From a virus: a DNA stretch of 44,429 bases. Below are positions 10,066 to 44,429 of the stretch, piece after piece. Position numbers and translations under genes: made by a program. Positions within the stretch are counted from its first letter, which is position 1. The number at the start of each line of letters is the position of its first letter. Below the pieces are notes generated by a model that was not told the DNA's origin, did no database searches, and saw nothing but the letters and a program-made list of their open reading frames with translations. Location of the stretch: the IMG/VR virus record IMGVR_UViG_3300025284_000071, positions 1-44,429 of that record; one strand, given 5' to 3'.

Positions 10066-10452
10066 ATGCCTGATTTTTCGGAACGCTTGAAGGCTGAGCG
10101 CAGTCGTCTGCAGCTTTCCCAGGCCGCCATGGCCGAGGCGGGCGGGGTCAGCTTGAATTCACAGTCGAACTACGAGAACGGCCATCGGTCTCCCGATGCG
10201 GCATATCTCTCGCGGGTGGCCGCTATAGGTGTCGACGTCGCTTATCTGCTGACGGGCGTTCGCGCGCTTGCGCTCAAAGCGCCGGGAGCGACTGACTCCA
10301 CCGGCGACGCAGCAGGTGATTCCGTGACGCGCGTGGTGACGCGTGAGCAGGCTGCGCTCCTGGACAACTACGAAGCCGCGGATGAGCGAGGCCGCGCGGC
10401 GGCGCGCAGCGTTCTTGATGCGCTCACGCAACCGAAGAGGGCCAACGGGTAG
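10066..10452 (+). CDS. Prophage repressor (XRE helix-turn-helix)
   Basis: A 128-residue DNA-binding protein. Residues about 5-62 form a Cro/CI-type helix-turn-helix (FSERLKAERSRLQLSQ, SNYENGHRSPDAAYLSRVAA, GVDVAYLLTG), as in many phage repressors. The C-terminal half lacks the Ser/Lys protease residues of LexA/CI, so it is a non-cleavable P2 C-type repressor; SOS induction by self-cleavage is not expected. It starts at the ATG at 10066 after AGAGGG. It is divergent from the early operon across the operator-like repeats. The putAbiC gene follows 87 bp downstream in the same direction and is probably expressed in the lysogen from the same transcript. Confidence 0.85.
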   Translation: MPDFSERLKAERSRLQLSQAAMAEAGGVSLNSQSNYENGHRSPDAAYLSRVAAIGVDVAYLLTGVRALALKAPGATDSTGDAAGDSVTRVVTREQAALLDNYEAADERGRAAARSVLDALTQPKRANG

Positions 10453-13163: not shown

Positions 13164-13841
13164 CTAGTGCGTCGCGTGGTTCAAAATTGTCATCACGCGA
13201 CTGCTTCTCGCATATCGTTTCTGTTCCAAGGCATCTATAACGCCAACTGCAACTGCATGCATTGCAAGGGTCGCAGCGTTGGCATGGAGGTCTAGCTCGC
13301 TGCGATCTGCTACTGTCAGCTTTCTCCCGTGTGCAATTTGATTTCTGCTATTTACTAACCTATCCAGTCTCGCCTTTTCCTGGGCGACGGCTGATGAGTC
13401 AAGGTTAAAACGCTCAAGCCAACTAGAAAGTAAGTCCGGCCAAAGATTGGCCACGTTGTCTGGCCGCTCATAGTCCGCAGGTTTCAACAGCTTCGCCTCG
13501 AACTCCGTAAGCAGCTTGGAAAAAAAATCAGAGGGACTGTCAATATTCTTTAGATCAGCCTGCAGTTTGCGAAATGACTGAACTGCAATCGGCCATTTCA
13601 GATCTATAGGGTTGAGCGATAGCGCGACTAAAGCATCAACATAGATACCGAGCGCGAATTTACAGAAGCCTTCATAGTGCGCGTAGATCATAGCCAGATT
13701 CGTTCTCAAGAATGTGGCCTCTTGCGTGCTTCCGATGGTAGTTGAGAGGAGGTGTCGCCGGAGGACCGCAAGCTCTGTTTCGCGCCAATCGAGATCGGCT
13801 TGAATCTGTTGAGCGTACAGGTCAGAGAACGACTGCGTCAT
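13164..13841 (-). CDS. MAE_28990-like HEPN nuclease
   Basis: A 225-residue all-helical protein. The HEPN active site R-x4-H is R166-NQIA-H171 (within NSRNQIAHG). The N-terminal LRTNLAMIYAHYEGFCKFALGIYVDAL is characteristic of the MAE_28990/MAE_18760 HEPN group. HEPN proteins with intact R-x4-H are usually metal-independent RNases, acting as toxins or defence effectors. Its ATG lies 20 bp inside the DUF262 gene, so the two are translationally coupled. I infer that this is the effector of a two-gene defence module with DUF262 as sensor or partner. The region is visibly AT-richer than the phage genes, a sign of transfer. Confidence 0.82.
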   Translation of the reverse strand: MTQSFSDLYAQQIQADLDWRETELAVLRRHLLSTTIGSTQEATFLRTNLAMIYAHYEGFCKFALGIYVDALVALSLNPIDLKWPIAVQSFRKLQADLKNIDSPSDFFSKLLTEFEAKLLKPADYERPDNVANLWPDLLSSWLERFNLDSSAVAQEKARLDRLVNSRNQIAHGRKLTVADRSELDLHANAATLAMHAVAVGVIDALEQKRYARSSRVMTILNHATH

Positions 13842-14949
13842 CGATCGCTTTTGTAATGATCTCGATGCGGCGATTTAGCTTAGGCAGCGAGTTCGCCCCT
13901 GGGCCAGTAACGCTCCGGAAGGCCTGCGATTCAACTGCATCAGCCAGTATTTTTCGAGCCTCGTCGGAATGAAGGCCTCTCAGGTCATTGAGCCGCTCAA
14001 GTGCACCGATCGAAACGGCTTCAAAGTAGGCTGGGGCGACCCCTCCAATGGGCTGTCCTCCGCGATACTTAACAAATGCATATGGCCCGAACTTGTCGGC
14101 CAGAGTGTCGAAGACCGCAACGAACGTTTGGACGTCGTCGTCACCGAATGGGAGGCCGTCAAGGAGCACTGCCTCCATGAAACGATCGAGCCAGTCACCC
14201 ACGTTCCCCTTGAAGAACTCGCGAAAATTCTTCGCCGCGAAAAACCTTAGAACGAGCTCTTCATCGCCGCGGCTCTCGACCGAAGTTTGTGAAAGAAGCT
14301 CGACTGTGATTCGGAAAGCGGGGTGCCGAGCGCATGTCATGAGCGTTTCGTAAAACTTGGCGCCCTGTTCGCCGAGCATGCGTGCGTTCACGTTTCGGAT
14401 ATCTTGGTCGGATAGCTTAGCTCCGCCAGTATTGAGACGTTTAAACATCTCATACCGCAAGAACTGGCTACTCTGCCTCTTGATAATGACAGTTCGGATG
14501 CCGGTCCGTTTCAGTCGCAGGCGCAGCGTGATGGGAAGATCTTCGAAGGTGTGACCATTCAGTTCGGTGACAAGGTCACAGCCCTCAAGCTGCAATGGCT
14601 TGAACGGTGGCTCTTCGCTCGGCTGGCCGAGATCCTCTGCTGCGCTTTGGTTCAGGCTTCCAGCTGAGATGAAATGCAGTAGCGAGCTAACCCGTTGTAG
14701 GCCGTCGATCAACTCTAAGACCCCGGACTCTTTTTCGATCACGAATATCGAAGGGATGGGAAGCTCAAGCAGCAGCGACTCGATGAGCCTCGACCTTTGT
14801 TGAAAGGTCCACCGGAAAAGTCGTTGGAAATCAGGCTGAATAACTAGTTCCCGTGCTTCGTGCAGCGCAATGATTTCCCCGACCGACATGTCAAGACTTT
14901 CGGTCCTGACTTCGCCGATCTTCTTGTCGATGGCATCGATTACGTTCAT
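13822..14949 (-). CDS. DUF262 (ParB/GmrS-like) protein, partner of HEPN
   Basis: 375 residues from the ATG at 14949, preferred over 14955 because AGG lies 6 nt before it. The DUF262 core is intact: QPDFQRLFRW (38-47), QQRSRLIESLLLELPIPSIFV (50-70) and IDGLQR (81-86, the DGQQR motif with Leu in place of the first Gln). DUF262 is a ParB-like NTPase/nuclease fold found in GmrSD and many defence proteins. No DUF1524 HNH nuclease domain follows, so it is not a GmrSD enzyme. The second half (RFFAAKNFREFFKGN, DVQTFVAVFDTLAD) is helical. It is the first gene of a two-gene operon with the HEPN nuclease, between phage gene D and other cargo. Confidence 0.85.
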   Translation of the reverse strand: MNVIDAIDKKIGEVRTESLDMSVGEIIALHEARELVIQPDFQRLFRWTFQQRSRLIESLLLELPIPSIFVIEKESGVLELIDGLQRVSSLLHFISAGSLNQSAAEDLGQPSEEPPFKPLQLEGCDLVTELNGHTFEDLPITLRLRLKRTGIRTVIIKRQSSQFLRYEMFKRLNTGGAKLSDQDIRNVNARMLGEQGAKFYETLMTCARHPAFRITVELLSQTSVESRGDEELVLRFFAAKNFREFFKGNVGDWLDRFMEAVLLDGLPFGDDDVQTFVAVFDTLADKFGPYAFVKYRGGQPIGGVAPAYFEAVSIGALERLNDLRGLHSDEARKILADAVESQAFRSVTGPGANSLPKLNRRIEIITKAIDDAVVL

Positions 14950-14972
14950 GATCATCCTATAGAAGTGGCCAA

Positions 14973-32851: not shown

Positions 32852-34762
32852 ATGCCCCTGAAATCCGCTGCGTCCGGCCGCACTCGCCGGACTGTTTCTG
32901 TCGCTGCGAAGAAGTCCGCGTCGCACAAGCGTGGACGGGCTTCGAACGTCGCCAAAGTGGCGGCGCCTGCTGCCGATGTTGGCGGCGTCGCGAGCACTGC
33001 GGCGGGCCAGATTGCCACGTTGACGCCGCAGGCGCAACCCCGCACCGCGGCGCGGTTCCTCGCGTGGACGGGCTGGAAGGTCAAGCAGATCGCGGAGCAC
33101 CTGGGCGTGCCGGCGTCGACGGTCTACGGCTGGAAGGAGGCCGACAAGTGGGACGACGCGCAGCCGCTCGACCGCGTGAACGGCGCGCTCGAAGTGCGGC
33201 TCATCCAGCTGATCCTGAAGACCGAGAAGACCGGCGGGGACTACAAGGAGATCGATCTGCTGGGCCGTCAGCTGGAGCGCACTGCACGCGTCGAGAAGTA
33301 CCAGCAGACGGGGCGCGAGGGCGACCTGAATCCGAACATCGCGGCACGCAATGCGGCGCCGAAGCGAAAGCCCAAGCGCAACGAGTTCAGCGAAGACCAG
33401 ATCGCGCTGCTCGAATCGAAGCTGCGCGAGTCGAACTTCCCGTTTCATCAAAACTGGTTCGATCAGCAGTACCAACGGCTGCGCGCCATTCTCAAGGCGC
33501 GGCAGATCGGCGCGACGTTCTATTTCTCGCGCGAAGCGCTGCTGTCGGCTGCGAAGGAGGGGCGCAACAAGCTTTTTCTGTCGGCCTCGAAGGCGCAGGC
33601 GCACCAGTTCCGCAGCTACATCGTCGATTTCGCCAAAGAGGTCGACGTCGATCTAAAGGGCGAGAACATCAAGCTGTGGAACGGCGCCGAGCTGATCTTC
33701 CTGGGCACGAACGCGATGACGGCCCAGTCGTATCACGGCGACTTCTACTTCGACGAGTTCTTCTGGGTTCCGCGCTTTCGCACGATCAACAAGCTGGCGA
33801 GCGCGATGGCCTCGCACAAGCACTGGCGCAAGACCTACTTCTCCACGCCGTCCGCGATGTCGCACGAAGCCTATGGCTTCTGGACCGGTGACGACAGGAA
33901 CAAGGGCCGCGCGAAGAAAGACCATGTCCGCATCGACACGACGCACAGGGCGTTGCGCGGCGGTGCCCTGGGCCTCGATCGGAAGTGGCGCGACATCGTC
34001 ACGGTGGAAGACGCGGTCGCGCTGGGCTTCGATCTCTTCGACATCGCCGAGCTGCGCGAGGAATACAGCGTCGACGAGTTCGCGAACCTGTTCATGTGCC
34101 AGTTCATCGACGACAGTCTTTCGCTGTTCACGCTGGCACAGATGCAGGCCTGCATGGTCGACAGCTGGGAGACGTGGAGCGACGTCAAGCCGCTATGGCT
34201 TCGGCCCTACGCGCATCACCCTGTGTGGGTTGGCTATGACCCTTCGGACAAGGGCGACGCGGCGGCGCTGGTGGTCGTGGCGCCGCCGCGCGTGCCCGGC
34301 GGCAAGTTCCGCATCCTGCACCGAGAGCAGTTCAGGGGCTCCGACTTCGAGGCCCAGGCCGAGGCGATCCGGCGCGTCACGCAGCAATACAACGTCGTGC
34401 ACATCGGCATCGACAAGACGGGTCTTGGCGCAGGCGTGTTCCAGATCGTCGAGAAGTTCTTCCCTCAGGTGAAGGGCTACCAGTACAGCATCGAGGTGAA
34501 GCAGCGCCTGGTGCTGAAGGCGCAGCAGGTGATCCACAAAGGCAGGCTCGAATTCGATGCCGGATGGACCGACATCGCAGCGTCATTCATGGCCATCAAA
34601 CGCGTGCTCACGGCCAGCGGCCGGAATGTGACCTACGACTCGGGCCGCTCGGAAGAGACGGGACATGCGGATCTTGCGTGGGCAACGATGCACGCGCTCG
34701 ACAACGAAACATTGGCCGGCGACGTCGTCGGCGGCACTTCGCGAATGGAGATTTTTGGATGA
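32852..34762 (+). CDS. P: Terminase ATPase subunit gpP
   Basis: A 636-residue large terminase. An N-terminal helix-turn-helix (WTGWKVKQIAEHLGVPASTVYGW) precedes the ATPase with the Walker A-like KARQIGAT (215-222) and Walker B DE at 301-302 (FYFDEFFW). The C-terminal nuclease has GYDPSDKGDAA, HIGIDKTGLG and EETGHADLAWATM. All match P2 gpP. The ATG at 32852 lacks a strong ribosome site; the first 40 residues are basic and low-complexity, so a later start is possible. Confidence 0.95.
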   Translation: MPLKSAASGRTRRTVSVAAKKSASHKRGRASNVAKVAAPAADVGGVASTAAGQIATLTPQAQPRTAARFLAWTGWKVKQIAEHLGVPASTVYGWKEADKWDDAQPLDRVNGALEVRLIQLILKTEKTGGDYKEIDLLGRQLERTARVEKYQQTGREGDLNPNIAARNAAPKRKPKRNEFSEDQIALLESKLRESNFPFHQNWFDQQYQRLRAILKARQIGATFYFSREALLSAAKEGRNKLFLSASKAQAHQFRSYIVDFAKEVDVDLKGENIKLWNGAELIFLGTNAMTAQSYHGDFYFDEFFWVPRFRTINKLASAMASHKHWRKTYFSTPSAMSHEAYGFWTGDDRNKGRAKKDHVRIDTTHRALRGGALGLDRKWRDIVTVEDAVALGFDLFDIAELREEYSVDEFANLFMCQFIDDSLSLFTLAQMQACMVDSWETWSDVKPLWLRPYAHHPVWVGYDPSDKGDAAALVVVAPPRVPGGKFRILHREQFRGSDFEAQAEAIRRVTQQYNVVHIGIDKTGLGAGVFQIVEKFFPQVKGYQYSIEVKQRLVLKAQQVIHKGRLEFDAGWTDIAASFMAIKRVLTASGRNVTYDSGRSEETGHADLAWATMHALDNETLAGDVVGGTSRMEIFG

Positions 34763-35802
34763 GCAAACGCAAGGGAAGCACGCGCCACCAGTCGACCGGC
34801 ATCGCGCCGGCGGAGCCGGCCATGGAGTTGACGACACACGGCGGCGGCTCGGTCGAGGCTTTCAGCTTCGGAGACCCGGAGCCTGTGAGCCGCATCAGGC
34901 TGCTCGACTATGTCGAGAGCATGTTCAACGGCCGTTGGTATGAGCCGCCTTTGCCGTGGGAAGGGCTCGCGAGCGCACTTCATGCGTCGCCACACCATGG
35001 CTCCGCCATCCGTCTGAAGCGCAACCTGCTGAAGTCCATGTTCATTCCTCATCCGCGGTTGTCGAGCGCGACGTTCGGGGCGATGGCGCTGGATTTTCTG
35101 GTCTTCGGCAACGCCTACGCGGAGCAGCCGCGCGCCTTCACGGGCCGCGCACTGGAGCTGCGGCACTCGCTGGCGAAGTTCACCCGACGAGGGGACGAGG
35201 CGGGCCGTTATTTCTTTGTCCGCGGCTGGCATCAAGAGCACGAATTTCCCGAAGGCTCGGTGCTCCATCTTCGCGAAGACGACGTCAATCAGGAGGTCTA
35301 TGGCTTGCCGGAGTACATCAGCGCGCTGCAGTCGGCCTGGCTCAACGAGGCGGCCACCATGTTCCGCAGGAAGTACTACGCGAACGGCTCGCACGCTGGG
35401 TTCATCCTCTACATGACGGACGGGCAGATAGACAACGCCGACGCCGATGCACTTCGGACCGCGCTGAAGAACTCGAAGGGGCCGGGCAACTTCCGAAACC
35501 TGTTCCTGCACATGCCGGGCGGCAAGTCCGACGGCCTGAAGCTGATACCCGTGAGCGAGGTGGCCGCGAAAGACGACTTCTCCGCCATCAAGAACGTGAG
35601 CAAGGACGACATCCTCGCCGCGCACCGGGTGCCACCCGGACTGCTCGGCATCGTGCCGACCAACGCCGGCGGTTTCGGCAACGCGCCCGACGCGCTGAAG
35701 GTTTTCATCAGGAACGAGATCGCGCCCCTGATGCAGCGCTTCCGCGAACTCAATGACCTGGCCGGGGAAGAGCTGGTCCGGTTCCTCGACCTGCCGGAGT
35801 AG
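34759..35802 (+). CDS. Q: Portal protein gpQ
   Basis: A 347-residue P2-type portal. FNGRWYEPPLPWEGLASALH, GAMALDFLVFGNAYAEQP, EVYGLPEYISALQSAWLNEA and VSKDDILAAHRVPPGLLGIV are family signatures. The ATG overlaps the P stop (ATGA). The dodecameric ring connects head and tail and threads DNA during packaging. Confidence 0.95.
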   Translation: MSKRKGSTRHQSTGIAPAEPAMELTTHGGGSVEAFSFGDPEPVSRIRLLDYVESMFNGRWYEPPLPWEGLASALHASPHHGSAIRLKRNLLKSMFIPHPRLSSATFGAMALDFLVFGNAYAEQPRAFTGRALELRHSLAKFTRRGDEAGRYFFVRGWHQEHEFPEGSVLHLREDDVNQEVYGLPEYISALQSAWLNEAATMFRRKYYANGSHAGFILYMTDGQIDNADADALRTALKNSKGPGNFRNLFLHMPGGKSDGLKLIPVSEVAAKDDFSAIKNVSKDDILAAHRVPPGLLGIVPTNAGGFGNAPDALKVFIRNEIAPLMQRFRELNDLAGEELVRFLDLPE

Positions 35803-36167: not shown

Positions 36168-36827
36168 TTAGTCGGAGCGACCTAGGAAATGGGCGGATTG
36201 AGGCAGCACGGTGGATGCCAAATACGTGCGGATGTCGCGGAGAACTTCCGCGTCAGTCTCCGGCCTTACCTTGCATTTCTCTGCCCATGCACGCCCTGGG
36301 TGAATTAAGTCCCAGCGCGGCCGCAGGCCTTCATAACGGCCCTTGCCCGGATCGTGGTTGCCAAAGCCCTCGACGAAAAGATTCCACAGTGGCGAGAACT
36401 TCGCGATCATCAGCGACTCCCCTAGCGGAATCCAGATCTCGTCAACCACTAGGTAGCGGCAGGAGAAATCCTCAATTGATAGCGTCTTGGTGGCCGTCAC
36501 CGACTCAGCGTGTTCGATGAGCCGATTGAACAGTGCCTTCGAACGCGTGGGGTCGGCCATTACCTTACCCTTCCGAGCGCCTTGAGGGACAGCCTTACCC
36601 ACGTATATCGGGATGATCGGGTCTTTCGTATCTGCCTTGTTTGGTTCCGAAATCGGCCGGTAGACCTCGAAGTCGCCGTGGTAGTAGATGGCGTAGATGC
36701 CGGTTCCCATGAACGGCTTGATTCGGCCGAGCGAATGGGCCGGCTGACTCACCAGAGCCTCGGCCACGCTTGCGCCGAGGTTCTTCTTGTCCAGCGGGTT
36801 GAACGGGATGATCTCGGCGGTCGTCAC
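36168..36827 (-). CDS. Eco29kI-type GIY-YIG restriction endonuclease
   Basis: A 219-residue type II restriction enzyme. The GIY motif is in GTGIYAIYYHG and the YVG motif in IPIYVGKA. The active-site Arg and His are in RLIEH, the Glu in IPLGESLMIAKF and the Asn in PLWN, matching the layout of Eco29kI (214 residues). Eco29kI cuts CCGCGG, so that is the likely target; this is inference by family. The GTG at 36827 overlaps the methylase stop (GTGA), so the nuclease is made after, and coupled to, its protecting methylase. It lies outside the phage packaging genes as cargo. Confidence 0.88.
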   Translation of the reverse strand: MTTAEIIPFNPLDKKNLGASVAEALVSQPAHSLGRIKPFMGTGIYAIYYHGDFEVYRPISEPNKADTKDPIIPIYVGKAVPQGARKGKVMADPTRSKALFNRLIEHAESVTATKTLSIEDFSCRYLVVDEIWIPLGESLMIAKFSPLWNLFVEGFGNHDPGKGRYEGLRPRWDLIHPGRAWAEKCKVRPETDAEVLRDIRTYLASTVLPQSAHFLGRSD

Positions 36828-38041
36828 GCGGCCGCCCTCGTGTCGCCATGTTTGGAGGAAAGACGACGGCCCTGTGATTCGAGTAAAGCTTGGCCTACCG
36901 AGGAAGCCACCAGCCGCCCTAAGGCGACCGGCACGGCGTTGCCGAGCTGGCGCATCGTCTCTGACCACGAGCCGTGGAATACATAACCGTCGGGGAACGT
37001 TTGAATGCGGGCCGTCTCGCGAGCCGTGAAGTAGCGCACTGAACCATCAGGTAGCACCATCATGTTTTCGCCGCCTGGTACACCGTGGTCTCCAGCCTTG
37101 ATGGTCTTGGCCGGCTGATCGAGCGGGCTGCCCGTGTGGCCTGGGTACGACTTGGCTCCGGCTTGAAAACGGTGGTCGCGGAACTCTCGCGCGGCTCGTG
37201 ATTGCGGATCTGGCAGACCCGCGATCGCGTCACGCACGGTACGCCAAGGCAGTTCGCGAGGCGGGTTGTCGGCCAGTCGGCGAACGCGGGTCACGAGCTT
37301 CTCTGGCATGGTGGGCCGGTCCTTCTTAGGAATGCCGTGGCGTTCCCAATAATCTCCCGTCACCCACTGCGCGAACAGCAGCGCATCCTCGCTATGCGTG
37401 GCATCGGGGAAGTGCCAGTCGATGTCGAGATCAGAGCGCGTACCCACGATAAAAACGCGTTCGCGCTTCTGCGGGACACCGTAGTCGGCGGCATTCACCA
37501 GCGTGGAGGTGACGTTGTATGTGAGGCCAGTTCCGTGCATTCGACCGGAAGTCTTCTCGGTCTGCAAGCGCATGAAGTGGTCAAACCACGTTTCAGTCTT
37601 CCGGCGTGGCGCCTCGGGAAACTCCAGCTGCAGCTTGATGTACTCGAAATAGTTGGCGAAAGTCGAGCGTGTCAGCCCCTTCACATTCTCGAGGATGAAA
37701 GTCTTCGGGCGAAGCTGTCGCACGATCTGCACCGTCGGGGGAAACATGTCCCGCTTATCGTCGTGAGCTTGGTGCTTGCCGCCCATTGAGAAGGGCTGGC
37801 AGGGAGGTCCCCCGGCGAGCAGCTCAATATCTTGCGGGAGAGAAGACCAGTCAACATCGCGCACGTCGCCCTCGCGCAAGGGCCAATGCTCCACTAAGGG
37901 ATATCCCCGGCGCTGGTTCTCGCGAACGGTATCGCAGGCCCACTTATCCCACTCTACGACCGCGAGAGACTCAAAACCGGCGAGGCTTACCCCCATGGCC
38001 AAGCCGCCGGCGCCCGCATAGAGCTCAACTGCGCGCATCAT
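36824..38041 (-). CDS. C5-cytosine methyltransferase of the Eco29kI-type system
   Basis: A 405-residue protective methylase. Motif I ELYAGAGGLAMG, motif IV GGPPCQPFS with the catalytic Cys, ENV motif ILENVKGL, motif VIII QKRERVFIVG and motif X QLGNAVPVALG are all intact. The target-recognition region lies between motifs VIII and IX. It presumably methylates the same site as the adjacent nuclease. The start overlaps the vsr stop (ATGATG). It is not closely related in layout to the orphan methylase at 2146-3150, which lacks ENV and has a phage-type leader. Confidence 0.93.
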   Translation of the reverse strand: MMRAVELYAGAGGLAMGVSLAGFESLAVVEWDKWACDTVRENQRRGYPLVEHWPLREGDVRDVDWSSLPQDIELLAGGPPCQPFSMGGKHQAHDDKRDMFPPTVQIVRQLRPKTFILENVKGLTRSTFANYFEYIKLQLEFPEAPRRKTETWFDHFMRLQTEKTSGRMHGTGLTYNVTSTLVNAADYGVPQKRERVFIVGTRSDLDIDWHFPDATHSEDALLFAQWVTGDYWERHGIPKKDRPTMPEKLVTRVRRLADNPPRELPWRTVRDAIAGLPDPQSRAAREFRDHRFQAGAKSYPGHTGSPLDQPAKTIKAGDHGVPGGENMMVLPDGSVRYFTARETARIQTFPDGYVFHGSWSETMRQLGNAVPVALGRLVASSVGQALLESQGRRLSSKHGDTRAAA

Positions 38042-38460
38042 TTCGCATCTTTCTCGTCATTCAAAAAACATTCCAATCTGGACGCGAGGGCGTCGAGATC
38101 GCGCAGCTCGCATTCCCACACGATCATCGCACTCCAACCCAGCTGCGCGAGTGCCGCCAACTTACGTTGATCGCGAGCTTGGTTGCCGTTGAGCTTGGTA
38201 GACCAAAAATCGATCCTTGATTTCGGCATGCGGGCAAGTCGGCAACCTTCATGTCGATGCCAAAAACACCCGTGCACGAAGATCACTTTTTGCCTTCGAG
38301 GAAACACGAGATCGGGTGAGCCGGGCAGCTTCTTGTCGTGAAGGCGATATCGATACCCACGGGAATGAAGCAGTCGGCGCACAACTAGTTCCGGCTTGGT
38401 GTCTCGGGCACGAACGCGCGCCATGCGCTCCGATCGTTGCTTCGGAGTGAGCGTGTCCAT
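38038..38460 (-). CDS. vsr: Very short patch repair endonuclease (Vsr)
   Basis: A 140-residue enzyme that nicks next to T in T:G mismatches arising from deamination of 5-methylcytosine. Key parts: LTPKQRSERMARVRARDTKP, catalytic Asp in GSPDLVFP, the IFVHGCFWHRHEGC zinc and active-site region, and QLGWSAMIVWECEL. It is the first gene of a vsr-methylase-nuclease operon and protects the genome from mutation at the methylated site. Confidence 0.95.
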   Translation of the reverse strand: MDTLTPKQRSERMARVRARDTKPELVVRRLLHSRGYRYRLHDKKLPGSPDLVFPRRQKVIFVHGCFWHRHEGCRLARMPKSRIDFWSTKLNGNQARDQRKLAALAQLGWSAMIVWECELRDLDALASRLECFLNDEKDAK

Positions 38461-38535
38461 GCTTCGAGATTCTAGAGGGAGTCAGCGACCCCGCGGGCGC
38501 TTTCGATCGGCGCGAAAAGTTTGCCGGGTGGGCGC

Positions 38536-38946
38536 TCAGATCTGCCGAACCTCGAAGTACGCCTCTTCGGTGTCACCGAGATCCCGATAGGCCGCCGTTC
38601 TGGCCGCGTCATAGGCCTTGACCCAACGCGTAGCCAACACGACTTCGTCTTTCGTTAGCTCGGCTTCGCTCGCCTCTGTCACCGACACATAAGCGCGCTG
38701 CGCACGTAGCACCTCCTCGCCCAGATGCTTCTCGAGTTCGCGGCGGAACCGTTGCTCGGCCACTCGCACGATGTCTGCGGTCGGGTGAGGGTAGTCCATG
38801 AAACGCACGATGTAGGCTCCGTGCCCGGCGGCCGAAGCACTCGAAAAGTCTATCGGCTCATCATCGACCGGCGCCTCTAAGGGTTCAGATCGATGTTGGC
38901 GCGGCGCCTGCGGGGGAATCGGGAAGTGAAATTCCGCTTGGTTCAT
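38536..38946 (-). CDS. Hypothetical protein, cargo block 2
   Basis: 136 residues from the ATG at 38946 (GGAG 7 nt upstream). It overlaps the next upstream gene by 62 nt, more than usual, so the start may be further in. Acidic Pro-rich N-terminus, then YIVRFMDYPHPTADIVRVAE and helices (FRRELEKHLGEEVLRAQRAY, TRWVKAYDAARTAAYRDL). No family is recognised. It is the last gene of the leftward string that begins at the LexA box. Confidence 0.55.
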   Translation of the reverse strand: MNQAEFHFPIPPQAPRQHRSEPLEAPVDDEPIDFSSASAAGHGAYIVRFMDYPHPTADIVRVAEQRFRRELEKHLGEEVLRAQRAYVSVTEASEAELTKDEVVLATRWVKAYDAARTAAYRDLGDTEEAYFEVRQI

Positions 38947-39280
38947 GATCAACTCCAGCAGCCTTCTCCAGAAGGCTCAATGACAGTTCTCGGGGGAGGT
39001 CGTAGCACTCGCAGAACCAGACTTGGTAGTACCAGCGTCCGGCCACATGCTCGGCGCCGGCGAAACTGATCGTGTCGTATGCACAGGCGACGATCTCGGG
39101 GCGCCACAGAATTCCTAGCGGAGGCTGTTGGTCACCTGGCCGTGCGTGCCAGAGCCCGAGCTGCAGGCGGTCATCTACTGTTCGCAGCTCCAGCATGCCG
39201 CAGGCCCACTTCTGATCCACGAACTCACGCTTGCTGAGCTTGGTGCCGCCTCGGTAGCGGCGGCGCATCTTCACTCGCAT
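38885..39280 (-). CDS. Hypothetical protein, cargo block 2
   Basis: 131 residues from the ATG at 39280 (TGAGG upstream). Basic start (MRVKMRRRYRGGTKLSKR), then a Trp/Tyr/Cys-rich centre (VDQKWACGMLELR, WYYQVWFCECYDL) and an acidic or Ser/Pro tail. Not recognised. It lies 7 bp after the paralogous small gene and is probably co-transcribed with it. Confidence 0.6.
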   Translation of the reverse strand: MRVKMRRRYRGGTKLSKREFVDQKWACGMLELRTVDDRLQLGLWHARPGDQQPPLGILWRPEIVACAYDTISFAGAEHVAGRWYYQVWFCECYDLPRELSLSLLEKAAGVDHEPSGISLPDSPAGAAPTSI

Positions 39281-39287
39281 GCTGGCC

Positions 39288-39512
39288 TCAGGACTTCGCC
39301 GCAGGCTTGGGCATGAACCCAGGCAACTCATGCATCACAGCGCGGATGTGGTCACCGGCGTTGCGGTCCCAGTCGCCGTACAGGTCACCGATGCGCGCGC
39401 AGCGCCCGGCGACCTCGTCGGCGAAATCGCGCAGGGTGGGGCGCATCGGATCTTCCGGGCCGAGTTCACCGACCCTGCGCGCCATTTCCACCAGCTCAAC
39501 CTCAATTTCCAT
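39288..39512 (-). CDS. Small hypothetical protein, paralogue of the next gene
   Basis: 74 residues from the ATG at 39512. The C-terminal half shares FA--V----CA-----D and NAGD-IRA----LP with the product of 39534-39941. The two therefore come from a local duplication, the smaller one lacking the long N-terminal part. Helical; no known family. It is 21 bp downstream of its paralogue in the leftward string. Confidence 0.65.
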   Translation of the reverse strand: MEIEVELVEMARRVGELGPEDPMRPTLRDFADEVAGRCARIGDLYGDWDRNAGDHIRAVMHELPGFMPKPAAKS

Positions 39513-39533
39513 CACGTACTCACTGGGGCAGGG

Positions 39534-39941
39534 CTAGAAGGGCAGGCGTCCATAGAGCGCTCTGATGCGGTCGCCAGCGTTGCCCTTTTTCGGGTGCCCG
39601 AACCCGTCGGCCGTCGCGGCGCACAGCTCGACGACATTGAAAGCGAACTCTTGCAGGGCGGGATTCAGCTTGTCGCCATTCATGATGATCTCGGCGCGCA
39701 TCGCCAGCTTCTCGAACTCTCCCACAGGGTCGCGAACGAGGTCTTCGCTATCGGAGCTGCAGTTCTTGAAATGGACGGCGGCAATCTCTTTCGCAGGGTG
39801 GCCGCCAACGACCCTATGCAATGCGAGACCCTGGGAGAACAAGCTCTCGTAGTCTCCGCGGCCTTCGGCCAGCAGCAGCCATTCCGAGGCGAACAGGGAG
39901 GCCCAGACGACGTAGCTCGGCTGCGGGGTGATTTCAGGCAT
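39534..39941 (-). CDS. Hypothetical protein behind the LexA box
   Basis: 135 residues from the ATG at 39941 with AGGAG 6 nt upstream. EWLLLAEGRGDYESLFSQGL, DLVRDPVGEFEKLAMRAEII and the C-terminal NAGDRIRALYGRLPF. The last is shared with the neighbouring 74-residue paralogue. It is the first leftward gene from the LexA box at 39958-39977, only 16 bp away, so it is very likely SOS-repressed. No function is recognised. Confidence 0.68.
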   Translation of the reverse strand: MPEITPQPSYVVWASLFASEWLLLAEGRGDYESLFSQGLALHRVVGGHPAKEIAAVHFKNCSSDSEDLVRDPVGEFEKLAMRAEIIMNGDKLNPALQEFAFNVVELCAATADGFGHPKKGNAGDRIRALYGRLPF

Positions 39942-39957
39942 TTCTAGCTCCTAAAAG

Positions 39958-39977
39958 TACTGTATGGATTTACAGTA
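39958..39977. promoter_or_regulatory. LexA (SOS) box between divergent genes
   Basis: TACTGTATGGATTTACAGTA keeps CTGT-N8-ACAG and matches the E. coli-type consensus at 17 of 20 positions by my count. It lies 16 bp before the leftward gene and about 50 bp before the SRAP start, so LexA could repress both directions. Confidence 0.85.
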
Positions 39978-40029
39978 TCTTCCCAGGGTTTATGACCGTC
40001 AACCAATTTCCCGACGCAAAATGTCAGTC

Positions 40030-40800
40030 ATGTGTACTCGTTACATATCCCCTGAGGATCGCGAGATTGAGGCCGCCTGGTACATCGGTGCTCGCAGCGC
40101 CGAGCGGTGGCTCCGCAGCATGCGGCCGATGTACACGGGGGCGTTCATGCGTCGCGCCGTCGACAAGACGGAGTACGAGCGGGAGATCGCGGTAGGGCAG
40201 TGGTCGCTGATTCCAGCGTGGTCGAGCAGCCATGTCCCGACGGCGCCCCCGCGCAAGGGCGAGACGAAGGGCAAAGAGCTGGCCACGCACAATGCCCGCT
40301 TCGCCGGCATCGAGAAGAAGCCGGCCTTCAAAGACGCATGGAAGCTCAGCAGGCGCTGCATCATTCCGGCCTGGAGTTTCGATGAGCCGAACTGGGAGTC
40401 GGGCAAGAACCAATGGTGGCGGTTCCGCCGCGCGGACGGTCGCCCCTGGGGCCTGGCCGGCCTGTGGAGCACCTGGCAGGATCTGGAGACGGAGCAGGTG
40501 TGGGAGAGCTACACCATGCTCACGATCAATGCGAACCTGCACCCGATCATGTCGCGCATGCACAGGCCCGAGATCGACAGGGCGACGAAGAAGCCGCTCG
40601 AAGTGCAGGACAAGCGCTCGGTGGTCGCGATCGAGGAGCACGACTTCGACCGGTGGCTGACGTGCACACCTGAGGAGGCGCGGGAGATGGTCCAGCTGAT
40701 CCCGGTGGACCTGATCGACGCAGGGCCGGCAGCGGCTGAAGAGCTTCGAGAGGCGCAGGTGGCGCCTACTGATGCCGACGAAGAAGAATTGCCGTTCTGA
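40030..40800 (+). CDS. SRAP / HMCES (YedK-like) abasic-site protein
   Basis: A 256-residue protein that forms a DNA-protein crosslink with abasic sites in single-stranded DNA. The catalytic Cys must be residue 2 after Met removal, so I chose the ATG at 40030, giving MCTRYI with C2 and R4. An upstream ATG at 40021 would give MSVMC and block this. Other family blocks: LATHNARFAGI, LSRRCIIPAWSFDEP and LTINANLHPIMSRMHRPEI with the active-site His. A LexA box upstream predicts SOS induction. It may protect phage or host DNA in damage. Confidence 0.88.
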   Translation: MCTRYISPEDREIEAAWYIGARSAERWLRSMRPMYTGAFMRRAVDKTEYEREIAVGQWSLIPAWSSSHVPTAPPRKGETKGKELATHNARFAGIEKKPAFKDAWKLSRRCIIPAWSFDEPNWESGKNQWWRFRRADGRPWGLAGLWSTWQDLETEQVWESYTMLTINANLHPIMSRMHRPEIDRATKKPLEVQDKRSVVAIEEHDFDRWLTCTPEEAREMVQLIPVDLIDAGPAAAEELREAQVAPTDADEEELPF

Positions 40801-40811
40801 GCGGTGGCGGC

Positions 40812-41090
40812 TCAGTGCAGTCCCGGCCGGCGGCGCGGTGGCGGTGGCTCGAATGGTTCTTCAAGCTCGTAGCCTGGCACTTCGTAATTGAGCGTCGCGA
40901 AAGCCACGGCAGCGGCCTCGCGCGGATCTCGATCGACGTGGAAGGGGTAGAGCGTTGCGGTCAGTCCATTGAGCCAATGCTCATCGATTTCGTCGTTGCA
41001 CAACTCGTGGAAGGCGTCCTTGAATACGCGCCACCACGTCTCCTGATCTGTTGGCGTGACGCCGCCGCTAGCTTTGGCTTGCTTGCGCAT
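40812..41090 (-). CDS. Hypothetical protein, cargo block 2
   Basis: 92 residues from the ATG at 41090. Basic start (MRKQAKASGG), then WWRVFKDAFHELCNDEIDEH and DPREAAAVAFATLNYEVPGY, ending with a Pro-rich tail (EPPPPRRRPGLH). Convergent with SRAP, divergent from the second putAbiC gene. Not recognised. Confidence 0.55.
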   Translation of the reverse strand: MRKQAKASGGVTPTDQETWWRVFKDAFHELCNDEIDEHWLNGLTATLYPFHVDRDPREAAAVAFATLNYEVPGYELEEPFEPPPPRRRPGLH

Positions 41091-41167
41091 GCTCCCATGT
41101 TACGGCGATGGAGCGATGCCCGTGCTCCGGCTACGATCCCCTCGAATCAAAACACGAGAGGAAGAGG

Positions 41168-42079
41168 ATGAAAGAAATGCCCGGATTGAAGCAATGGTGG
41201 ATTGAGATTCGACAGATAGCTCCCTGGTTTCTTGGCATTTTGGCCGCCGTTCTCTTTGTGTGGGTCGTCTACGCTAAGGCCGTCGTGCCATGGCTTTCGA
41301 AGTCAATGATCACCACAGAAACTGGCACCGCATACGGGCAGTTTGGAGATATGTTCGGCGGGCTAAACACCCTCTTTGCAGGGCTCGCCTTTGCATTTGT
41401 TGCGGTTGCTGCATATTTCCAGCGGCAGACCATGCACTCACAGAGAGATGAACTGGAAGCCACCAAAGCCCAGGGAGCATTGCAGGCGTTCGAGCCATTG
41501 TTTTTTCAGTTGCTCAAACTCTTCCGGGAATTGCAAATGCAAGCGCATGTGGGGGTGCCTGCTATTGCGGGCAGCCGTGGCTGGGATTTGCCTCTTCAGC
41601 ACCCCGACTCGGTGGAACTCATCAGGGAAATAGCGATGAAGGCCAAGTTTCAATACTCAACTGGTCTCCGAACAGAGGAGGCAAAGAGGAGAGCGGAGGA
41701 ACAAATCCGAACAGAATACCTAGCCGTTCATAGACACAGCGAAGGGCATTTGGGGCCAATGTTTCGCACCTTTTACCATGCTGTCCGATTGATTGCAGAT
41801 TCTGGCCTTCCCCCAGAGACACAGGTACGGTATGCGAACATCGCCAGGGGCCTTTTAGGAGGCGACTTTTTAATGTTGCTGATGCTGAATTGCTTAAGCG
41901 AGCCCGGCGTGGGGTTTAAACCCTTCGTAGAGCATTTCGGACTACTCAAACACATTCGTCGAGATCCTCGCGAACTCGATGAGTTCATCGCATCATTTTT
42001 TGAGCCGAGCGCGACGCTCGGGTATCGCGAACGACTGACACACTGGGGGGCGGCGGGAGCGCCGCAGCTACCTAAATGA
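41168..42079 (+). CDS. Second putAbiC-family membrane protein
   Basis: 303 residues from the ATG at 41168 (an ATG at 41177 is also possible). Membrane spans at about 19-37 and 66-84 flank the family motif AYGQFGDMFGGLNTLFAGLA. A charged helix follows (QRQTMHSQRDELEATKAQG), then a soluble domain with FEPLFFQLLKLFRELQ. It has the same architecture as the protein at 10540-11580 but is clearly diverged, so it is not a recent duplicate. It is the last gene before the right att repeat, a typical site for late-gained cargo, and its DNA is visibly AT-richer than the phage core. Confidence 0.82.
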   Translation: MKEMPGLKQWWIEIRQIAPWFLGILAAVLFVWVVYAKAVVPWLSKSMITTETGTAYGQFGDMFGGLNTLFAGLAFAFVAVAAYFQRQTMHSQRDELEATKAQGALQAFEPLFFQLLKLFRELQMQAHVGVPAIAGSRGWDLPLQHPDSVELIREIAMKAKFQYSTGLRTEEAKRRAEEQIRTEYLAVHRHSEGHLGPMFRTFYHAVRLIADSGLPPETQVRYANIARGLLGGDFLMLLMLNCLSEPGVGFKPFVEHFGLLKHIRRDPRELDEFIASFFEPSATLGYRERLTHWGAAGAPQLPK

Positions 42080-42164: not shown

Positions 42165-42180
42165 CACACTCTCCGCCAGG
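42165..42180 (+). repeat. Right att-like repeat (tRNA-Ser 3'-end-like)
   Basis: CACACTCTCCGCCAGG, identical to 493-508. It is followed, as on the left, by a terminator hairpin and an integrase gene. The T-loop-like GTTCGGGGA before it is more degenerate than the left copy. This is both the right end of the prophage and the left end of the next element. Confidence 0.7.
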
Positions 42181-42288: not shown

Positions 42289-42312
42289 GGGATGGCCTAT
42301 GGGATGGCCTAT
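42289..42312 (+). repeat. Perfect 12-bp tandem repeat before the second int
   Basis: GGGATGGCCTAT occurs twice without spacer, just upstream of the int start at 42319. It belongs to the same ATGGCC motif group as 619-641 and 42106-42116. Confidence 0.55.
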
Positions 42313-42975
42313 AGAACAATGCCCAAGCGCTCACGTGAACTATCTGCAATCGAGGTCGGACGCCTTCGCGCCGAAGGGGCGCATGCCGTTGGCGGGGTGC
42401 AGGGGCTCTACCTTCAGGTAATAGCCGGATCGAGGTCTTGGGTGCTGCGCTACGTGTTCGGTGCGCGGCGCCGCCGCATGGGGCTGGGAAGCTTCCCCTC
42501 TGTACCCCTCGCCCAAGCCCGGGAGAAGGCCCGTGAGGCCCGCAAGCTGATCGACGAAGGGGTAGACCCCGTCGAGGCCCGAAAGGCCGTTAAAAAGGCT
42601 GCGGCTGCATCGCAGGCGCGCGCGCTGACGTTCAAGACCGCCTGCGAGCGCTTCATCGCTGCGAAGGAATCCGAATGGCGCAATGCCAAGCACCGGGACC
42701 AGTGGGAAAACACGCTCGAAACCTACGCCGAGCCCGTCATCGGACATCTGGGCGTGTCCGAGATCGGCCAGGATGAGGTGCTCCGCGTGCTCGATCCGAT
42801 CTGGCGAACGAAGACAGAGACCGCGAGCCGGCTGCGCGGGCGCATCGAGCAGGTGCTGGACTGGGCGAAGACGCGCGGACACCGCACGGGCGAGAACCCG
42901 GCGAGCTGGCGCGGCCATTTAGAGTAGCTAACAAAACATGTCATCGCCGGAAGCCGTACGGGCGTTTGACGCTGC

Positions 42976-43410
42976 ATGGCTCGAAACAAGAACAAGAAAA
43001 TCAGCACTGCGCTGTGGCAGAAGATCGAGCCGCTGCTGCCGCAGGTCGTGCCCTCGCTCAAGGGCGGGCGCCCACGAGTGAGCGACGAGATGGCACTCAA
43101 CGGTATCGTCTTTGTGCTGCGCACCGGCATCCCGTGGGAAGAACTGCCCCAGGAACTGGGCTTCGGCAGCGGCATGACCTGCTGGCGGCGTCTGCGTGAC
43201 TGGCAAGCAGCAGGCGTGTGGCATCGCCTGCATCTGTTGTTGCTGGCCGAGTTGCGAGGAGCCGGCAAGCTGGACTTCAGCCGTGCCAGCATCGATGCGG
43301 CCAGCGTGGCCAGCCCCCGGGGGGCCAGTACACCGGCCCCAACCCGACGGACAGGGGCAAGCTCGGTAGCAAGCGCCACATCATCACGGAGCGCCAAGGC
43401 ATCCCGCTGA
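42976..43410 (+). CDS. IS427-group transposase, first frame (OrfA)
   Basis: 144 residues as read without shifting. The DNA-binding N-terminal domain (WQKIEPLLPQVVPSLKGGRP, LNGIVFVLRTGIPWEELP, CWRRLRDWQAAGVW) continues to the first catalytic Asp in ASIDAASV. The frame then drifts into non-homologous sequence after the C5G6 run at 43314-43324. The active enzyme needs a -1 shift there to join OrfB. Confidence 0.88.
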   Translation: MARNKNKKISTALWQKIEPLLPQVVPSLKGGRPRVSDEMALNGIVFVLRTGIPWEELPQELGFGSGMTCWRRLRDWQAAGVWHRLHLLLLAELRGAGKLDFSRASIDAASVASPRGASTPAPTRRTGASSVASATSSRSAKASR

Positions 43411-43787
43411 TCTTCTGCGTCACGGGCGCCAATCGGCACGACTCGGTAGTGTTCGAGCAACTGGTCGATGCTTTGTCGACGGTGCGCGGCTATCGCGGTC
43501 GGCCCAGACGCTGGCCGCACAAGTTGCATGCCGACAAGGGCTATGACTTTGCGCGTTGCCGCGCCCATCTGCGCAAGCTGGGTATCACGGCGCGCATTGG
43601 CCGGCGTGGCATCGAGCGCAATGACCGGCTCGGGCGTCATCGCTGGGTGGTCGAGCGCACGCACGCCTGGTTGGCTGCCTTCGGCAAGCTGCGTACTCGC
43701 TTTGAGCGCCGCATCGACATTCATGTCGGGCTGCTTTCTCTGGCTTGCTGCGTCATCTGCATTCGCAAACTCACCCCGTTTTGTTAG
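43218..43787 (+). CDS. IS427-group transposase, second frame (OrfB)
   Basis: The homologous part starts at about 43323 (GQYTGPNPTDRGKLGSKRH) and runs to 43787. It contains the second catalytic Asp in HADKGYD and the Glu in RWVVERTHAWL, completing the DDE triad. The -1 fusion with OrfA gives about 270 residues, the normal size. Upstream codons of this frame are not meaningful and it has no start of its own. Confidence 0.88.
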   Translation: MASPASVVAGRVARSRQAGLQPCQHRCGQRGQPPGGQYTGPNPTDRGKLGSKRHIITERQGIPLIFCVTGANRHDSVVFEQLVDALSTVRGYRGRPRRWPHKLHADKGYDFARCRAHLRKLGITARIGRRGIERNDRLGRHRWVVERTHAWLAAFGKLRTRFERRIDIHVGLLSLACCVICIRKLTPFC

Positions 43788-44429
43788 CCTCTCTTAGACA
43801 AGCTACTGCCGAAGCCCGAGAAGATCGCCAAGGTCAAGCATCACCCTGCGGTGCCAGTGGCGGACGCCGCGACCGCGATCGAGGCGATCAGTCGCGTCGA
43901 TGGGGTCAGCGTGCAGGCCCTGTTGTTTCAGGTGCTGACCGCCGGGAGGTCGGGCGAGATCCGTGGCGCCCGGTGGGCGGAATTCGACTTGGAAGCGGCG
44001 CTATGGGACGTGCCCGAGGAACGCATGAAAGGGAAGCGGCCGCACCGCGTACCCCTTTCAGCCCAGGCGATCGCGCTGCTGCAGTCGTTGCCGCGATACG
44101 AGGATTGCGACCTGGTGTTTCCGGGTCGGCAACTGCAGCAGCTGTCGGACATGTCTCTGACCGCGTGCATGCGCCGCCTCGATTTCCGTGACTCGGCTGG
44201 GCGGGTGTGTGTGCCCTACGGCTGGCGTTCCACCTTTCGGGACTGGGCTGCGGAGCACACCCACTACCCCCCGGAAATGGCTGAGATGGCGCTGGCTCAC
44301 GCGATCGAGAGCAAGGTAGAGGCGGCGTACCGTCGTGGTGACATGCTCGCCAAACGGGCTGCGATGATGCAAGACTGGGCCGACTACTGCATTCCTCCGC
44401 CGTTGTCGTCGGCCCAGAAGAAAGACTAG

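What the first reader, a model, noticed from the sequence alone, without database searches (positions are those of the whole stretch)
39534..40800. SOS-controlled SRAP gene inside a prophage
A LexA box with 17 of 20 consensus positions controls, in both directions, an HMCES/YedK-like abasic-site protein and an unknown gene string. The prophage repressor lacks self-cleavage residues, so damage would induce these genes without necessarily inducing the phage. Carrying a DNA-damage tolerance gene as phage cargo is notable.
Basis: partly seen in the sequence, partly recalled or inferred. Interest (0 to 1): 0.65.

Follow-up and report, generated by a model that had tools for sequence, protein, structure and literature searches.

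The report
Damage-switched DNA-protection gene in prophages
A virus dormant in a Variovorax-like bacterium carries an intact gene for a protein that shields sites of lost bases in DNA, placed under the host's own DNA-damage switch, and the same wiring recurs in most related virus copies of this gene in Burkholderia-type bacteria, so it looks like a conserved survival kit rather than chance.

Summary
Observation confirmed. A 17/20 LexA box (39958-39977, perfect CTGT-N8-ACAG core) lies between an intact SRAP gene (40030-40800 +; MCTRY start; catalytic C2/N88/E119/H178) and a leftward string of small unknown genes. It is the only such site in the window (25.8 bits, next best 10.1). In two Variovorax genomes the same motif precedes lexA, recA, imuA and a DinG-like helicase, so it is the host's SOS operator.

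The wiring is conserved: all 19 close viral relatives, 3 Variovorax chromosomal copies, 42/75 wider viral SRAP loci, 72/80 Burkholderia-phage-type loci, and phages KS9, Mana, Magia, AP3, BgManors32. Genome SRAPs of the host family: 2/30. Acinetobacter (no LexA) and Stenotrophomonas phages lack it.

Phage SRAP as such is known (2013), and one Acinetobacter prophage SRAP is damage-inducible. The conserved LexA divergon in Burkholderiales phages and its unnamed helical partner family appear undescribed in the library searched. No binding or induction was measured.

The parts
39958..39977 (.). LexA (SOS) box TACTGTATGGATTTACAGTA, shared by two divergent transcription units
   Evidence: conserved at -72 in relatives, invariant CTGTAT/ACAGT in alignment A3
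40030..40800 (+). SRAP (HMCES/YedK-type) gene, 256 aa, Cys2 after start, N88/E119/H178 conserved
   Evidence: Pfam SRAP; translation; invariant columns of A1; nearest solved relative PDB 1zn6, E 5.8e-28
39534..39941 (-). Divergent partner: 135-aa two-domain helical protein of an unnamed family
   Evidence: no Pfam/PADLOC/NCBIfam hit; family alignment A2; AlphaFold2 mean pLDDT 83, pTM 0.47
39288..39512 (-). Second leftward gene, 74 aa, like the C-terminal half of the partner
   Evidence: alignment A2: shares A100, V103, C107-A108, D112, A122-G123, I126-R127
38885..39331 (-). Third leftward ORF, unknown
   Evidence: conserved in relatives
38536..38952 (-). Fourth leftward ORF, unknown
   Evidence: conserved in relatives
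39974..40002 (-). Predicted leftward sigma-70 promoter TTGACG-N17-GATACT; its -10 hexamer overlaps the LexA box
   Evidence: only promoter-like hit in 38380-41120; its GTCAA (-35, other strand) is largely kept as far as Burkholderia phages
493..508 (+). Likely attL core (16-bp direct repeat)
42165..42180 (+). Likely attR core (16-bp direct repeat)
10067..10452 (+). Putative prophage repressor, HTH only, no S24 peptidase

Best explanation
This is a LexA-controlled divergent accessory module of a P2-like Variovorax prophage. In the lysogen, host LexA bound to one operator represses SRAP on the right and a small-gene operon on the left. When damage loads RecA on single-stranded DNA, LexA cleaves itself and both units come on, whether or not the phage's own HTH-only repressor is lifted. 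SRAP then traps abasic sites in single-stranded DNA as a stable Cys2 cross-link, protecting gapped or rolling-circle replicating DNA of host and phage from strand breakage until repair. Shown here: the box, its match to the host LexA motif, its conservation, the intact SRAP active site. Inferred: LexA binding, induction, cross-linking by this protein, benefit to the lysogen or phage. The partner's role is unknown.
For: Box present once, 17/20, 25.8 bits, above the scores of the Variovorax lexA and recA sites. The same palindrome in two Variovorax genomes precedes imuA, a DinG-like helicase and radical-SAM repair-type genes, and related sites precede recA and lexA. Found at all 19 close viral SRAP loci and 3 Variovorax loci: 15 viral ones at -72 to -75, four displaced to -285, -691, -692 and -780 by an extra upstream gene. 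Burkholderia phages KS9, Mana, Magia, AP3, BgManors32 have it at -68 to -87 though their SRAPs are only 29-36% identical. 42/75 and 72/80 IMG/VR SRAP loci have the perfect core within 350 bp; for the 75 the shuffle mean is 0.17; other windows of the same loci 13/811 and 8/682. After thinning at 80% identity: 12/28 and 9/11. Genome SRAPs of the Variovorax family 2/30, Fisher p 1.8e-6. Acinetobacter and Stenotrophomonas phage SRAPs lack it, as expected where LexA is absent (PMC7273328) or, from my own knowledge, has another motif. Active-site residues match YedK C2/N75/E105/H160 (PMC9436759).
Against: No binding or expression data. The rightward promoter has no clear sigma-70 match. A good part of the wider viral SRAP loci (33/75) shows no perfect box nearby. 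The viral and genome sets are not matched by phylogeny. Host identity is inferred from nearest relatives only.
Confidence: 0.78

Rival explanations
1. The divergon is the SOS induction switch of the prophage: one of the LexA-controlled leftward small proteins is an antirepressor that inactivates the non-cleavable HTH repressor, as Tum does in coliphage 186, and SRAP is expressed along with it.
For: The repressor has no S24 domain. 186 Tum is driven by a LexA-regulated promoter and lifts CI (PMC7708051). The module sits next to the portal gene, the slot equivalent to the cos end that holds tum in 186 and tin/old in P2 (map position from my own knowledge). The partner gene stays with SRAP across diverged loci.
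Against: No family hit for any of the leftward proteins. The divergent gene differs between phages, and in some it is umuD-like. A broken SRAP copy lies near a LexA box in a Variovorax chromosome with no phage shown around it.
Confidence: 0.15
2. SRAP is kept as a counter-defence gene: it shields abasic sites made in phage DNA by host glycosylase-type defences, and the LexA box only ties it to attack-induced SOS.
For: Glycosylase defence that makes abasic sites in phage DNA exists (PMC11078745). This prophage is rich in defence cargo: Eco29kI-type restriction-modification with Vsr, an NsnA/PD-T4-2_A plus HEPN pair, an AbiP/putAbiC-like gene.
Against: Nothing links SRAP to such a defence here; repression in the lysogen and a slow SOS response fit poorly with protecting an incoming genome.
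Confidence: 0.05
3. The palindrome is an operator of another regulator or a chance relic, and SRAP is constitutive or silent.
For: No experiment shows LexA binding. Some viral SRAP loci have no box.
Against: The same motif precedes lexA, recA and imuA in the host genus; expected chance rate 8e-5 per window; conserved core in otherwise poorly alignable promoters.
Confidence: 0.02

Closest known systems
SRAP family (E. coli YedK, human HMCES, PF02586)
   Same: Pfam match over cut-off; Cys2 and the N/E/H catalytic residues conserved; PDB 1zn6, annotated as a phage-related protein, is the nearest solved relative
   Different: Phage-borne and preceded by a LexA box; has insertions (about residues 65-85 and 180-190) relative to shorter phage SRAPs; no activity measured
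Temperate-phage SRAPs noted by the 2013 SRAP paper (SPBc2, Burkholderia prophage; PMC3765255)
   Same: SRAP carried by a temperate phage; damage link proposed
   Different: That paper proposed a damage sensor for the lysis switch; the passages read describe no LexA operator upstream of phage SRAP and no divergent partner
A. baumannii prophage CP9 SRAP A1S_2014 (PMC3978071, PMC7273328)
   Same: Prophage SRAP, mitomycin C-inducible and recA-dependent
   Different: Controlled through UmuDAb/DdrR in a host without LexA; lies with umuC
Coliphage 186 tum / p95 (PMC7708051)
   Same: LexA-controlled accessory promoter in a P2-type phage, apparently in the same genome slot
   Different: Encodes an antirepressor; the leftward proteins here show no detectable relation to any family

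Membership tests
SRAP (HMCES/YedK) protein | Pfam SRAP match over gathering score | tested here: met
   81.1 bits, cut-off 27.1
SRAP (HMCES/YedK) protein | Cysteine directly after the initiator Met | tested here: met
   MCTRY..., ATG 40030; invariant in A1
SRAP (HMCES/YedK) protein | Active-site Asn, Glu and His (YedK 75/105/160) | tested here: met
   N88, E119, H178 invariant in 11 phage SRAPs; YedK roles in PMC9436759
SRAP (HMCES/YedK) protein | Cross-link to abasic site in ssDNA | not testable with these tools
   needs purified protein
LexA/SOS regulon gene | Box matching the host LexA motif near the promoter | tested here: met
LexA/SOS regulon gene | Box conserved in orthologous promoters | tested here: met
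LexA/SOS regulon gene | LexA binding and recA-dependent induction | not testable with these tools
   bench work
P2-like prophage | gpA replication initiator, contractile tail, P2-type terminase and portal | tested here: met
   Phage_GPA 9.3e-70; sheath, baseplate, scaffold, terminase, portal families
186 Tum-like antirepressor module | LexA-controlled promoter in the slot beside the portal gene | tested here: met
   coordinates of portal 34759-35802 and box; the slot equivalence rests on known P2/186 maps
186 Tum-like antirepressor module | Sequence relation to Tum/DinI or another antirepressor family | tested here: not met
   no Pfam family for the leftward ORFs at E up to 0.1; no NCBIfam hit
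186 Tum-like antirepressor module | Inactivates the prophage repressor | not testable with these tools
   bench work

The most novel reading that the evidence does not exclude
A mobile LexA-run SOS divergon is a standing accessory module of Burkholderiales temperate phages, in which SRAP works together with a co-induced new protein family (the two-domain helical partner), either to handle SRAP-DNA cross-links or, Tum-like, to make phages with non-cleavable repressors SOS-inducible.
Probability: 0.2. Interest if true: 0.7.

Novelty: new variant of a known kind. Interest (0 to 1): 0.5.

Why it matters
Why temperate phages carry abasic-site protection proteins has been an open guess since 2013. 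A host-LexA operator that is kept in front of phage SRAP genes across diverged phages, and is absent in the tested phages of hosts without that LexA motif, says the gene is meant to be used during the SOS response. It makes the question directly testable in a laboratory Variovorax or similar lysogen, and it points to a partner family with no known role.

Tried and rejected
Start codon at 39964 proposed by the ORF list: rejected, since it lies inside the LexA box and would bury Cys2; 40030 is used. First pass that called L006, L011, L020, L021 and L024 box-less: wrong, as the box lies further upstream of an extra gene. First pass over genome SRAP loci used the wrong strand for minus matches, redone. 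Partner function by fold: the AlphaFold2 model matched nothing in the PDB, best E 1.7. Second TACTGT-like hit at 39176-39195 (2 mismatches): rejected, 10.1 bits and inside a gene.

Full report
What was checked. The window is one IMG/VR virus record of 44,429 bases. It holds a P2-like prophage: integrase 684-1886 +, excisionase-like 1883-2101 -, gpA 5624-7666 -, tail and head genes about 15-33 kb, terminase 33020-34762 +, portal 34759-35802 +. A 16-bp repeat, CACACTCTCCGCCAGG, at 493-508 and 42165-42180 is the likely att core, so the finding lies inside the element, between the portal gene and attR. The closest SRAP relatives in named genomes are in Variovorax (93% in V. paradoxus 110B), which I take as the host genus by inference.

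The observation. The box TACTGTATGGATTTACAGTA is at 39958-39977, 17 of 20 to consensus, and is unique in the window. SRAP is a full-length gene at 40030-40800 with the family match over its cut-off, the N-terminal Met-Cys, and N88, E119 and H178 invariant across 11 phage SRAPs, which correspond to YedK N75, E105 and H160 (PMC9436759). To the left, 39534-39941 starts 16 bp from the box, followed by three further small ORFs, then Vsr, a C5 methyltransferase and an Eco29kI-type endonuclease on the same strand. The sole promoter-like match in 38380-41120 points left, with its -10 hexamer overlapping the box. A clear sigma-70 promoter for SRAP was not found.

Is the box a LexA box of this host? In two Variovorax genomes the perfect 12-letter palindrome occurs only twice each in about 7 Mb. 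The pattern CTGTAT-N6-ACAG occurs 5 and 8 times on the forward strand with no hit for the reversed control. By my reading of the ORFs, the sites lie upstream of imuA (14-15 bp), a DinG-like helicase, two radical-SAM repair-type genes and small unknown genes. lexA, found by family, has two CTG-N10-CAG sites, and recA, found by family, has TACTGTTCAAGCATCCAGCC. A matrix from these sites gives the window box 25.8 bits, against about 17-24 for the lexA and recA sites left out one at a time. Part of the training set was found by pattern, so the score leans towards the motif; the lexA and recA sites do not share that bias.

Conservation. Of 19 viral SRAP loci, 15 have the box at -72 to -75 and four have it displaced to -285, -691, -692 and -780, upstream of an extra gene; none lacks it. 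Three Variovorax chromosomal loci have it too (-61, -72, -284). Three chromosomal MAG loci (Piscinibacter, Ideonella, a Burkholderiaceae bacterium) do not. Named Burkholderia phages BgManors32, Mana, KS9, Magia and AP3 carry it at -68 to -87; Bordetella PHB09, Stenotrophomonas S1 and two Acinetobacter phages do not (PHB09 has only 167 bases of upstream sequence in the record). In the alignment of 15 promoters the CTGTAT and ACAGT halves are invariant while most of the rest is not.

Numbers. A wide scan found 502 viral stretches encoding SRAP; of the 80 kept, 75 have 350 bp upstream and 42 have a perfect core there, against a shuffle mean of 0.17 and 13 of 811 other windows. A scan with Burkholderia-phage SRAPs gave 72 of 80 at -60 to -87, three of the other eight being one core letter off, against 8 of 682 other windows. 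After thinning at 80% identity: 12/28 and 9/11. SRAPs from genomes of the Variovorax family: 2/30. The genome set is ranked by Pfam score and not matched by phylogeny, so the contrast is indicative.

The partner. The leftward 135-aa protein belongs to a family that stays divergent from SRAP even where it has drifted to about 35-40% identity. It has no family hit, two predicted helical domains and no PDB fold match. The next gene resembles its C-terminal half. In other phages the place opposite SRAP is taken by unrelated small families or by a umuD-like gene. In P2-like relatives the region right of the portal is variable; about ten of 55 carry SRAP with the box, and some have a LexA box with other genes.

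Interpretation. The most likely working is a host-LexA-run divergon that turns on SRAP in damaged lysogens and in induced cells. That the phage itself stays silent is not shown. Its repressor is HTH-only, and no S24 peptidase is encoded, but 186 shows that such phages can be SOS-induced by a LexA-controlled antirepressor (PMC7708051), and the unknown leftward genes are candidates by position.

What is known. SRAP was named for its link to SOS operons, and its presence in SPBc2 and Burkholderia prophages was noted with a proposed sensor role (PMC3765255). The A. baumannii CP9 prophage SRAP is damage-inducible through recA and UmuDAb (PMC3978071, PMC7273328). A Marinobacter phage SRAP was suggested to protect viral replication (PMC8424206). 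I found no paper in the held library on a LexA operator in front of phage SRAP genes; subscription papers are mostly missing from it. Hence a new variant of a known kind, of moderate interest.

Noticed in passing
window 36168-38460 (-): Cargo restriction-modification set: Eco29kI-type endonuclease, C5 methyltransferase and Vsr, directly downstream of the SOS-controlled small-gene string; no strong terminator seen between them, so damage might also raise their expression.
   Followed up: partly
window 13164-14955 (-): HEPN protein plus GmrSD_N protein (PADLOC NsnA / PD-T4-2_A), a likely defence pair.
   Followed up: partly
window 41108-42079 (+): putAbiC/AbiP-like protein next to SRAP, likely abortive-infection cargo.
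   Followed up: partly
window 42292-44429 (+): A second, related integrase just beyond attR, split by an insertion element (about 42928-43800): apparently a tandem element with a broken integrase.
   Followed up: partly
G001:C4 59542-60188 and L035: Variovorax IB41 chromosome has a broken SRAP about 0.8 kb from a LexA box, a likely remnant of the same kind of divergon.
   Followed up: no
L207, L211, L043, L035: A small protein family (MDDEIPT.../MENIPAT...) follows a LexA box both in P2-like phages and in Variovorax chromosomes: an unnamed SOS gene.
   Followed up: no
L037, L040: Another small conserved Variovorax ORF (MTTASPPAP...) follows a near-perfect LexA box upstream of an RNA-ligase-like gene.
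   Followed up: no
L230, L231, L259: KS9 gp27-like small genes next to a LexA box in P2-like phages without a SRAP on that promoter.
   Followed up: no
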